NCBI GenBank assembly: GCA_028709585.1
Contig: JAQVWS010000003.1
Location: forward strand, 1-47,974
Direction: 5' to 3'
From: Syntrophomonas sp.
GTDB taxonomy: Bacteria > Bacillota > Syntrophomonadia > Syntrophomonadales > Syntrophomonadaceae
DNA length: 47,974 nt
Position 1 is the first letter of the stretch, and each line of letters begins with the position of its first letter. The translations under genes were made by a program, and so were the position numbers. Below are positions 2,148-6,160 of the stretch, in pieces. The notes under the pieces are model-generated. The model was not told the origin of the DNA and did no database searches. It was given only the letters and a program-made list of their open reading frames with translations.

Positions 2148-2486
2148 TTGAATACACAAGAAAAGTTTGAAAAGTCTTTCGGCGCGGCCGATGATATGGC
2201 AAAAAAATTTTGGGATATGTGGATGATGGGTCTAGGCAGCTTTACCTGGAGTCAGGAACAAATGGAATTGATGGTAAAAAAATACATGGATCAACGCCAG
2301 TCAGCTCGGGAAGAAAGCCAAAAGGTAATTGAAGAGATGCTTACCCAGGTTCAGAACAATCAGGCTCAATCACAGAAGATTATTAAGGAAACTGTTAGCA
2401 CCTTGTTTAATACGGTAGATATGCCTTATGCCAACTTTTATAGTGATTACCTTAAAAAGATGCAGGAAATGACCAAAACAGAATAG
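2148..2486 (+). CDS. Small helical protein, phasin/polyhydroxyalkanoate granule-associated-like
   Basis: 112 aa, TTG start with AAGGAGG RBS, amphipathic helical composition rich in Q/E/K; family assignment by resemblance only. Confidence 0.45.
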   Translation: MNTQEKFEKSFGAADDMAKKFWDMWMMGLGSFTWSQEQMELMVKKYMDQRQSAREESQKVIEEMLTQVQNNQAQSQKIIKETVSTLFNTVDMPYANFYSDYLKKMQEMTKTE

Positions 2487-2520: not shown

Positions 2521-2560
2521 TAAGGGGGGTAGTTCTGACCTAGCGGAACCACCTCCCTTA
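2521..2560. terminator. Stem-loop downstream of phasin-like gene
   Basis: TAAGGGGGGTAGTTC / GGAACCACCTCCCTTA imperfect inverted repeat. Confidence 0.5.
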
Positions 2561-2582: not shown

Positions 2583-2741
2583 CTAATCCATGGGTCCGCC
2601 TTCCCAATACTGTCTTATTTTCCGCAAGGCATAACCCCCGAAAAAAAGACCGTTAATAAATGCTACCGGTATGGCCATGGTATCAAAGTTGATTTTCTGT
2701 TTTAAGCTACGTTGTTTTTTTACTCTTCTTAATCTCTGCAT
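2583..2741 (-). CDS. 52-aa small protein, basic N-terminus plus one hydrophobic segment (not in the ORF track)
   Basis: Minus-strand translation MQRLRRVKKQRSLKQKINFDTMAIPVAFINGLFFGGYALRKIRQYWEGGPMD*; AAAGGAGG SD 8 nt upstream of ATG. Confidence 0.6.
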   Translation of the reverse strand: MQRLRRVKKQRSLKQKINFDTMAIPVAFINGLFFGGYALRKIRQYWEGGPMD

Positions 2742-2787
2742 TTTTAAATCCCTCCTTTGCTGTATTTTTAGCAGGAGGGATTTAAAA
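2742..2787 (-). promoter_or_regulatory. SD-sequestering hairpin abutting the small ORF start codon
   Basis: 14-bp perfect inverted repeat TTTTAAATCCCTCC (2742-2755) / GGAGGGATTTAAAA (2774-2787) plus inner TGCT/AGCA; the GGAGG SD is in the 3' arm on the minus strand. Confidence 0.6.
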
Positions 2788-2833
2788 TATAGCTGGTTTA
2801 TTTTTCATAATAATTTGAACAATTTATGTTGTT

Positions 2834-3907
2834 TTAAATATCTTTATTATTCAAAGCTCTAACGATCATTATGGTAGACATTTTCGAGAGGTCTACCTCA
2901 TGGAAGGCATTTACTCTATCCTTGTTGCGGCTATTAATAACCCTGACAATTGGACGGGTTGGCATTTTCTTATTGGTATCCACAACAACACCTATAACAC
3001 CGGAACTTAGCTCAACAATGCTGCCAATAGGATACACAGCTACATTAGCAATTAATGCGGTCATACACCTAGGATCCAAATAAGTTCCGCCCATGCGCTG
3101 CAGGATAGCTATGGCTTGACTGACGGAATATGAAGAGCGGTAAGGGCGATCCGCCAGCAGGGCATCGTATACATCTGCTACCGCTACAATCCTCCCATAT
3201 GCATGGATATCAGTGCCGGTCAGACTTCTTGGATAGCCGGTTCCGTTCCAGCGTTCATGGTGCTGGTAAGCAATATGCGCTGAAAGCAATGAGATATCGC
3301 TATATTTTCTAAGTATCTCAAAACCATTATAGGCATGTTTCTTTATATCAAGATATTCCTGCCGGGTTAGGTCGTCATCTTTGTTAAGGATTTCCTTATT
3401 GATCTTAATCTTGCCAATATCGTGCAGCAGAGCGCCGATACCTAATTCTATTAATTTATGACTGTCATAATTAAGGGTGACACCTGTCATTAAAGAAAGC
3501 AAACAAACGTTTACAGAATGGGCGAAGGTGTAATCATCAAAACTGCGAATATCAGTCAGGTTTACCAGAACATTGGAATTATACAGAAGTTCGTCGATAA
3601 GATTATTCACTGTATCTTTTATCTGGCGAACATTTAGCTTATGGTTTAACTCCAATGTTTGGAAGGTTTGCCTGACTATTTTGACCGTCTCAATCCGGTT
3701 TTTTTCAGATATTACCTCCGGTATATCAATATCACCGATTATTTCATCTTTGACATAAACGGAGGCTATTCCTAAGCTATGCAGACGTTCGATATATGAT
3801 TCAGAAAGAATAACCCCGGAACTAAGTAGAATGCGCCCTTCGCTGTTATAGATATTGCGGGCTACAATCATATTGGACTGGAGGTTTTCTATATTTATTC
3901 TTCTCAT
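2834..3907 (-). CDS. HD-GYP domain protein (putative cyclic di-GMP phosphodiesterase)
   Basis: 'LLHDIGKIKI' and 'HHERWNGTGYPRSLTG...AYGRIVAVADVYDALLADRPYR' motifs; internal ATG preferred (ORF extends to 3922). Confidence 0.9.
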   Translation of the reverse strand: MRRINIENLQSNMIVARNIYNSEGRILLSSGVILSESYIERLHSLGIASVYVKDEIIGDIDIPEVISEKNRIETVKIVRQTFQTLELNHKLNVRQIKDTVNNLIDELLYNSNVLVNLTDIRSFDDYTFAHSVNVCLLSLMTGVTLNYDSHKLIELGIGALLHDIGKIKINKEILNKDDDLTRQEYLDIKKHAYNGFEILRKYSDISLLSAHIAYQHHERWNGTGYPRSLTGTDIHAYGRIVAVADVYDALLADRPYRSSYSVSQAIAILQRMGGTYLDPRCMTALIANVAVYPIGSIVELSSGVIGVVVDTNKKMPTRPIVRVINSRNKDRVNAFHEVDLSKMSTIMIVRALNNKDI

Positions 3908-4029
3908 TTGAACCCCTATCAATAATAATTAAGTCATTCTTCATACATATTATACATTTTAATGCCTTTTCCTGCCTATATGGATAAAATTTCTTTTTTT
4001 GCAGCTATGACTTTAATCCTAATATAATA

Positions 4030-4159: not shown

Positions 4160-6160
4160 ATGAAAACTTCCAAAAAAAATAGCTTTCCACGGGCAATGCT
4201 TAAAAAACTAGCCGAAGATATTGCCCAACTTATTTCCACCAATGAAGGGAGCCTGTCCATTCTGGAAATAGTAGAGGAGATACCTTATGACATACGAGCC
4301 GATGTCATCGAAGGTTTATCTTCCTTTTACAGCGCTGAACTGGTGGTCTTTTATCAGCTTATTAAAATGGAGTATGGCAATGAATTTGAAGTCATATGTA
4401 ATCGAGCCCTGGCTAAATTTAACCTGGCCGGTCTGCAAACGGAAAATAAGCCGATATTAATAGGTGATTTTTATAAAGCCTATGCCACTGCCAGCCGCCA
4501 TACAGGCCGGATGACCATAGATATTGCCTGGAGGAACCCGGAATCCAATTGCCTATATGTGGAGTGTTTTTTCCTAACCTTCAGTTCAGATGGGGTGCAC
4601 AGCTTTTTTGTTCTAGAAAACATCAGTGTGGAACAATACGAGGGAGATCGAAAAATGTTGGCTGAGATGGTGGAGATTAGCTACGCAGAGAGCTGTTTTC
4701 TTATTAGCGATGCCTTTAAATTCAATGTGCGTTTTATGAGCCGACCTGCTCTGGGAAGATTCCTATACCAGAGATACCTGGATGAAGATCCGGAATATGA
4801 TCATACAAAATCCAATGCGGTCATAAGAAAACTTTCAGCCAAGCTCACACCTCGTCAAACGGTTAATAGTTTCTTTCATGCGCTGCGTTGCCAGGATTTT
4901 AATTATATGTTTTCCATTCTTGCAGACGCCAATATGTCGCAAGGGATGCTGCTTAAGCAGCTGAATCGGGCTATGAATCCTGGAGCCCTGCTTCTGGAAG
5001 GCCAAGCTGAAGAGGTTAAAGGTTCCAACAATAGCGCCGTAATAAATGCCTATTCCATAATAATGTACGAACATGAAGTATACCGGAGCGATTATTTTTT
5101 TAAAATTCTTAAGGGAATTGATGGAGGTTGGCTGATAGCCGATATTGATAGAATTGAAACCCATAAACTGGAGGCTGATTCAGAAGCCAATCCATTTGCC
5201 ATGCAGGTATACTGTCGAGTTTATGAGATACTTGACGTTGATGAACTTTTTGCCATCCTGGATCGGATAGATAATATTCGCGAAGTCGAGGAGCTGCCGT
5301 ATGGGATGCACATGAGGGTTACCTGTTTTGAGGATGACTTCAATCATGGAGTTTCATTCATGACCGGTGTCATTGCGGACATGGTGATAAATGGCGATGA
5401 GTTCGTAGTTATATCCCAGGATAATGACACAACTGAAGATTTTCATAATCTGTTAACGATTGATCGTTCTAGCCCCCTGGTTGCCAGGGGAAAATACGAA
5501 CTCAGTCTTATAACGGCCTATAGCTACTTGAACGGACAATACATAAATTTTGAGGATATACTGTTAAATGAAGAACAGGAGTCGTTTTTTGAAGACGGAA
5601 TGCGTTTTATAACGGCACGTTATATTGTAAAGGATCGGAATAAGGTAATAAAACGTTTGGAGAAAATGGCTATCTTAAAGGTTGAATTGCCGGGTGAATT
5701 ACAAGTCCTCTATCAGTCAGATAATTGTGTTGAAAATCCCGGTTTTTTGGCTGAATACATACTAGGTTCCAGCTGGATTACAGTGTCTGCTTTTGGTGAT
5801 AAAGATATTGGGTTAATACGCCAGCGTTTCGAAGACAATATGTATGATGCTTTAGAGTTTGACGGTTTAGAAATTAGAGAAGAAGGAATATTTGAAATAC
5901 TAACTTTAGATGTAAAAAAACAGTATCCGGATCTGGAATCAGCCTTGAAAGAAATGTATCTCAACAAATGGTATAACTCCCATTTTCCAACTCTCAGCGG
6001 AATGAGCCCGTCTGAAGCATGTCAGACCGAGGAGGGAACCAGATTGCTGTGGACTATGTTCAAACGGATCAAAAAGAAAGAACATCAGAGATACTTGCAG
6101 GGAGATCGCAAACAGATCAGGCTAAAAGAATATATTCGTAAGGTTAATTTCTATAAATAG
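4160..6160 (+). CDS. Uncharacterised multidomain protein, NTF2/SnoaL-like middle region and W...P.L.G.SP.EA C-terminal motif
   Basis: 666-aa ORF; 'TPRQTVNSFFHALRCQDFNYMFSIL...GGWLIADID' and 'WYNSHFPTLSGMSPSEACQTEEGTRLLWTMFKRI'. Confidence 0.6.
   Translation: MKTSKKNSFPRAMLKKLAEDIAQLISTNEGSLSILEIVEEIPYDIRADVIEGLSSFYSAELVVFYQLIKMEYGNEFEVICNRALAKFNLAGLQTENKPILIGDFYKAYATASRHTGRMTIDIAWRNPESNCLYVECFFLTFSSDGVHSFFVLENISVEQYEGDRKMLAEMVEISYAESCFLISDAFKFNVRFMSRPALGRFLYQRYLDEDPEYDHTKSNAVIRKLSAKLTPRQTVNSFFHALRCQDFNYMFSILADANMSQGMLLKQLNRAMNPGALLLEGQAEEVKGSNNSAVINAYSIIMYEHEVYRSDYFFKILKGIDGGWLIADIDRIETHKLEADSEANPFAMQVYCRVYEILDVDELFAILDRIDNIREVEELPYGMHMRVTCFEDDFNHGVSFMTGVIADMVINGDEFVVISQDNDTTEDFHNLLTIDRSSPLVARGKYELSLITAYSYLNGQYINFEDILLNEEQESFFEDGMRFITARYIVKDRNKVIKRLEKMAILKVELPGELQVLYQSDNCVENPGFLAEYILGSSWITVSAFGDKDIGLIRQRFEDNMYDALEFDGLEIREEGIFEILTLDVKKQYPDLESALKEMYLNKWYNSHFPTLSGMSPSEACQTEEGTRLLWTMFKRIKKKEHQRYLQGDRKQIRLKEYIRKVNFYK

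What the first reader, a model, noticed from the sequence alone, without database searches (positions are those of the whole stretch)
2583..2787. Unlisted 52-aa protein with its ribosome-binding site locked in a perfect hairpin
Directly visible on the minus strand: an ORF MQRLRRVKKQRSLKQKINFDTMAIPVAFINGLFFGGYALRKIRQYWEGGPMD* with an ideal AAAGGAGG SD. The SD and the spacer up to the ATG form the 3' arm of a 14-bp perfect inverted repeat (2742-2755/2774-2787). It lies downstream of, and on the same strand as, the HD-GYP gene. Inference: a small, possibly membrane-inserted protein under structural translational control (thermometer, sRNA or protein-opened switch).
Basis: partly seen in the sequence, partly recalled or inferred. 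Interest (0 to 1): 0.6.

Follow-up and report, generated by a model that had tools for sequence, protein, structure and literature searches.

The report
Spore-type small gene, read-through hairpin
A real but unannotated 52-residue membrane-type protein, conserved in Syntrophomonadales bacteria, seems to have its own spore-type promoter, and the eye-catching hairpin over its ribosome site most likely forms only in RNA that runs in from the upstream gene, as already proposed for the Bacillus sigG gene.

Summary
In detail: a 52-aa minus-strand ORF (2583-2741) has its SD and leader in the 3' arm of a perfect inverted repeat, 15 bp rather than 14 (2742-2756/2773-2787). The ORF is a real gene: found in the window's genome and 48 of 100 relatives, all of the same order, Syntrophomonadales, with dN/dS about 0.11-0.14. 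The proposed switch (thermometer, sRNA or protein-opened) is not supported. Aligned upstream regions share a two-box promoter, GNNATA, 14-15 nt, GNTMAAAATA, resembling forespore sigma-F/G promoters; the same matrix picks out SASP spore-gene promoters in these genomes. In the window the repeat's 5' arm is exactly the 15-nt promoter spacer, so mRNA from this promoter should lack it (SD opening cost about 0.1 kcal/mol, against 19.1 in read-through RNA). The perfect repeat is not conserved: congeners have 8 bp or none. Best reading: a forespore-type small membrane-protein gene whose RBS is locked only in read-through RNA from the HD-GYP gene, as proposed for B. subtilis sigG. No transcript data exist; start site and sigma factor are inferred.

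The parts
2583..2741 (-). ORF B: 52-aa protein MQRLRRVKKQRSLKQKINFDTMAIPVAFINGLFFGGYALRKIRQYWEGGPMD (ATG start, stop included in the coordinates)
   Evidence: homologues; dN/dS; no family in Pfam or NCBIfam above cut-off
2751..2758 (-). Shine-Dalgarno AAAGGAGG
   Evidence: sequence; AAAGGAGGGA conserved in most homologues
2742..2756 (-). 3' arm of the inverted repeat (AGGAGGGATTTAAAA): SD and leader up to the ATG
2773..2787 (-). 5' arm of the inverted repeat (TTTTAAATCCCTCCT), which coincides exactly with the 15-nt spacer of the predicted promoter
2788..2793 (-). -35-like box GCTATA
   Evidence: conserved GNNATA box across genera
2763..2772 (-). -10-like box GCTAAAAATA (forespore sigma-F/G type)
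2755..2757 (-). approximate predicted transcription start, about 7 nt past the -10 box (inferred, not mapped)
   Evidence: inference from the position of the -10 box
2834..3922 (-). upstream co-directional HD-GYP gene, presumed source of read-through RNA; no terminator was found between it and ORF B
2521..2560 (.). terminator-like hairpin between ORF B (-) and the phasin-like gene (+)
   Evidence: fold, (z about -2.5 to -2.8)

Best explanation
ORF B is a genuine small, probably single-helix membrane protein of Syntrophomonadales. It is most likely transcribed in the forespore from its own sigma-F/G-type promoter (GCTATA, 15 nt, GCTAAAAATA). Transcription from there would start at about 2755-2757, just at the SD, giving a leader with a free ribosome site. 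The 15-bp hairpin can form only in longer RNA that enters from the HD-GYP gene, where it locks the SD and keeps the protein from being made outside sporulation. Shown here: gene conservation, the two-box motif, its likeness to SASP promoters, the exact coincidence of the 5' arm with the promoter spacer, and the energies. Inferred: the sigma factor, the start site, the existence of read-through RNA, and the silencing effect.
For: Found in the window's genome and 48 of 100 relatives and in Syntrophomonas, Thermosyntropha and Syntrophothermus records; dN/dS 0.11 and 0.14 from the values. The two-box motif is at 14-15 nt spacing in nearly all of 31 representatives. A matrix built from 28 of them scores SASP upstream regions above 81 control genes (12 of 29 above the control 95th percentile, p = 5e-6). 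The spacer is exactly the reverse complement of the leader. SD opening cost 19.1 kcal/mol in long RNA and 0.1 in own-promoter RNA. No sigma-A -35 box lies upstream. All four order members without SASP and SpoIVA hits lack ORF B, and in three of them the neighbouring region is covered. B. subtilis sigG has a 20+ bp hairpin proposed to block read-through RNA and absent from its own transcript (PMC5942855).
Against: No transcript or protein data. The SASP p value is not corrected for relatedness, and the matrix did not significantly enrich spoIIR or gpr. SASP and SpoIVA genes are present in genomes that lack ORF B at a covered site (G036, G022), so it is not needed for having those genes. The perfect hairpin is confined to the window among sampled genomes; apart from the window, no representative's spacer order beats shuffled spacers at p < 0.05, although SD locking in long RNA is commoner than in controls (9 of 31 against 4 of 81).
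Confidence: 0.6

Rival explanations
1. The repeat is a mutational product, for instance of template switching that perfected a weak quasi-palindrome, and has no function; the gene still has its own forespore-type promoter.
For: The two nearest congeners have an 8-bp partial pairing at the same place and differ from the window at 6 of 15 spacer positions; among spacers only the window's exceeds shuffles clearly.
Against: SD locking in long RNA is commoner in the family than in control genes, and three related genomes carry a different, longer RBS-spanning repeat.
Confidence: 0.25
2. One reading: the hairpin is in the gene's main mRNA and is opened by heat, an sRNA or a protein.
For: Very stable SD-locking fold; the -35-like box could also be read as a sigma-A -10 (TATATT), which would put part of the 5' arm in the mRNA.
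Against: No sigma-A -35 box; the second conserved box would be unexplained; congeners L034 and L035 lack the hairpin; no Rfam family above its gathering score.
Confidence: 0.08
3. The repeat is an operator for a DNA-binding regulator of the promoter.
For: It spans the promoter spacer and the leader symmetrically about the -10 box.
Against: Not conserved within the genus.
Confidence: 0.05

Closest known systems
B. subtilis sigG (spoIIIG) read-through hairpin (PMC5942855)
   Same: Large hairpin over the RBS that is proposed to form only in read-through RNA from an upstream gene and not in RNA from the gene's own forespore promoter
   Different: Different gene; upstream gene is HD-GYP rather than spoIIGA-sigE; here no experiment exists and the perfect repeat is confined to one genome among those sampled
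Forespore sigma-F/sigma-G promoters (B. subtilis, C. difficile; PMC5942855, PMC3789822)
   Same: Two boxes with 14-15 nt spacing and an A closing the -10 box; resemblance to SASP promoters of the same genomes
   Different: The second G of the -10 box, as I recall it for sigma-F, is usually absent; sigma factor not shown
RNA thermometers and riboswitches that lock the SD
   Same: SD paired in a hairpin in the long RNA
   Different: 5' arm predicted to be outside the gene's own mRNA; no Rfam match above gathering score

Membership tests
Forespore sigma-F/G-dependent gene | promoter boxes of forespore type at about 15-nt spacing | tested here: met
Forespore sigma-F/G-dependent gene | expression dependent on sigma-F or sigma-G | not testable with these tools
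   no expression data
Forespore sigma-F/G-dependent gene | absent where sporulation genes are absent | tested here: inconclusive
   absent in 4 of 4 genomes without SASP and SpoIVA hits, but also in 10 with SASP; draft genomes
Read-through-silencing RBS hairpin (sigG type) | hairpin over the RBS in the long RNA and not in own-promoter RNA | tested here: met
   (energies; the start site is inferred)
Read-through-silencing RBS hairpin (sigG type) | read-through RNA exists and is poorly translated | not testable with these tools
   no RNA data; no terminator found in between
RNA thermometer / riboswitch | hairpin within the gene's main mRNA and conserved in relatives | tested here: not met
   the part about the main mRNA rests on the inferred start site
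Known protein family | match to a Pfam or NCBIfam model above cut-off | tested here: not met

The most novel reading that the evidence does not exclude
A lineage-specific family of small forespore membrane proteins whose genes are insulated from upstream transcription in different ways in different species: an RBS-locking hairpin built from the promoter spacer in some, a terminator-like palindrome in others.
Probability: 0.3. Interest if true: 0.5.

Novelty: new member of a known kind. Interest (0 to 1): 0.33.

Why it matters
It adds an undescribed conserved small protein with a probable link to spore formation in syntrophic bacteria, and a second candidate for the read-through block proposed for sigG. 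It also warns that an RBS hairpin seen in genomic sequence need not be in the gene's own mRNA.

Tried and rejected
Intrinsic terminator for the HD-GYP gene: no T-run follows the repeat on the minus strand (sequence; one search finds no such site). Known RNA family: no Rfam match above its gathering score. Sigma-A promoter: no -35 box, mean match 2.29 against 2.57 in shuffles. Compensatory changes: not tested with a pair-counting tool; by eye the 3' arm is nearly constant because it holds the SD. An SD-pairing test with simple shuffles looked strong, was weaker with dinucleotide shuffles, and was redone as opening energy. A co-loss argument from G002 was dropped because its contig ends about 270 nt past the neighbour gene.

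Full report
What is there. On the minus strand, 2583-2741 encodes a 52-aa protein with an AAAGGAGG SD. A perfect 15-bp inverted repeat (2742-2756/2773-2787) has the SD and the leader up to the ATG as its 3' arm. In the RNA that would run in from the HD-GYP gene, freeing the SD costs 19.1 kcal/mol, against a mean of 6.2 in dinucleotide shuffles and at most 10.9 in 81 control genes.

The gene is real. A protein search finds it in the window's genome and in 48 of 100 relatives, all of the same order, and names Syntrophomonas, Thermosyntropha and Syntrophothermus among the holders. A search of 399 genomes of the phylum gave only weak, partial matches outside the order. The C-terminal core is nearly invariant in alignment A2. 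dN/dS against two congeners is about 0.11 and 0.14, from the values. Neither Pfam nor NCBIfam has a family for it above cut-off. AlphaFold2 gives one helix, residues 2-47, at mean pLDDT 75.9 and pTM 0.37; the hydrophobic stretch suggests membrane insertion, which is inference.

The conserved promoter. Upstream regions aligned on the SD show two boxes at 14-15 nt spacing, GNNATA and GNTMAAAATA. A weight matrix from 28 of them scores SASP upstream regions above control genes (12 of 29 above the control 95th percentile, p = 5e-6, not corrected for relatedness); spoIIR and gpr were not significantly enriched. [quoted passage not shown] No sigma-A -35 box is conserved upstream. In the window the 15-nt spacer is exactly the reverse complement of the 15-nt leader, so RNA starting past the -10 box lacks the 5' arm, and its SD opening cost is 0.1 kcal/mol.

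How far the hairpin is shared. The perfect repeat is found only in the window. L002 and L003 of the same genus keep 8 bp; L034 and L035, from the same genus and without an upstream co-directional gene (their loci L083 and L084), have no such hairpin. Across 31 representatives, 9 have SD opening costs in long RNA above shuffles at p 0.05 or less, against 4 of 81 controls (Fisher p = 0.001; representatives are not independent). Spacer order alone exceeds shuffles clearly only in the window. L046, L047 and L049 have a different, longer RBS-spanning repeat. Several others (such as L004, L016, L020) have instead a palindrome that resembles a terminator.

Link to sporulation. The window's genome holds SASP, gpr, spoIIR and spoIVA matches. 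The four order members with neither SASP nor SpoIVA hits (G002, G003, G021, G059) all lack ORF B, while 49 of 59 with SASP have it (Fisher p about 0.002 worked out by hand, not corrected for relatedness or for incomplete assemblies). The neighbouring region is covered in G003, G021 and G059 and holds no ORF B; G002 cannot tell. G036 and G022 have SASP and SpoIVA but lack ORF B at a covered site, so the gene is not needed for having them.

Interpretation. The arrangement matches what is proposed for B. subtilis sigG, where a hairpin of 20+ pairs would block read-through RNA and cannot form in RNA from the gene's own promoter (PMC5942855). I favour this at 0.6. A neutral mutational origin of the perfect repeat is the main rival. 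Nothing here measures RNA or protein.

Noticed in passing
L052-L093, usually ending about 65-70 nt upstream of ORF B: A conserved ORF of about 34-37 aa with one hydrophobic stretch (such as MFLFIKLLSLFFIILIGGTLLYLLFAKVVPTVTNKK) precedes ORF B in most Syntrophomonadaceae loci and was not found in the window or its two nearest congeners.
   Followed up: partly
window 4160-6160 (+): 666-aa protein conserved next to ORF B in most loci, with no Pfam match.
   Followed up: partly
L046, L047, L049, upstream of ORF B: A different, longer repeat (CCTCCTTTCCTCATATT / AATATGAGGAAAAGGAGG) spans the -35-like box and the RBS.
   Followed up: partly
window 2148-2486 and 2521-2560: A phasin-like gene (Pfam match below its cut-off) faces ORF B, with a terminator-like hairpin between them.
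   Followed up: partly
window genome G000, contigs C140 and C36: The gpr match in the window's genome is split over two contigs, probably an assembly break.
   Followed up: no
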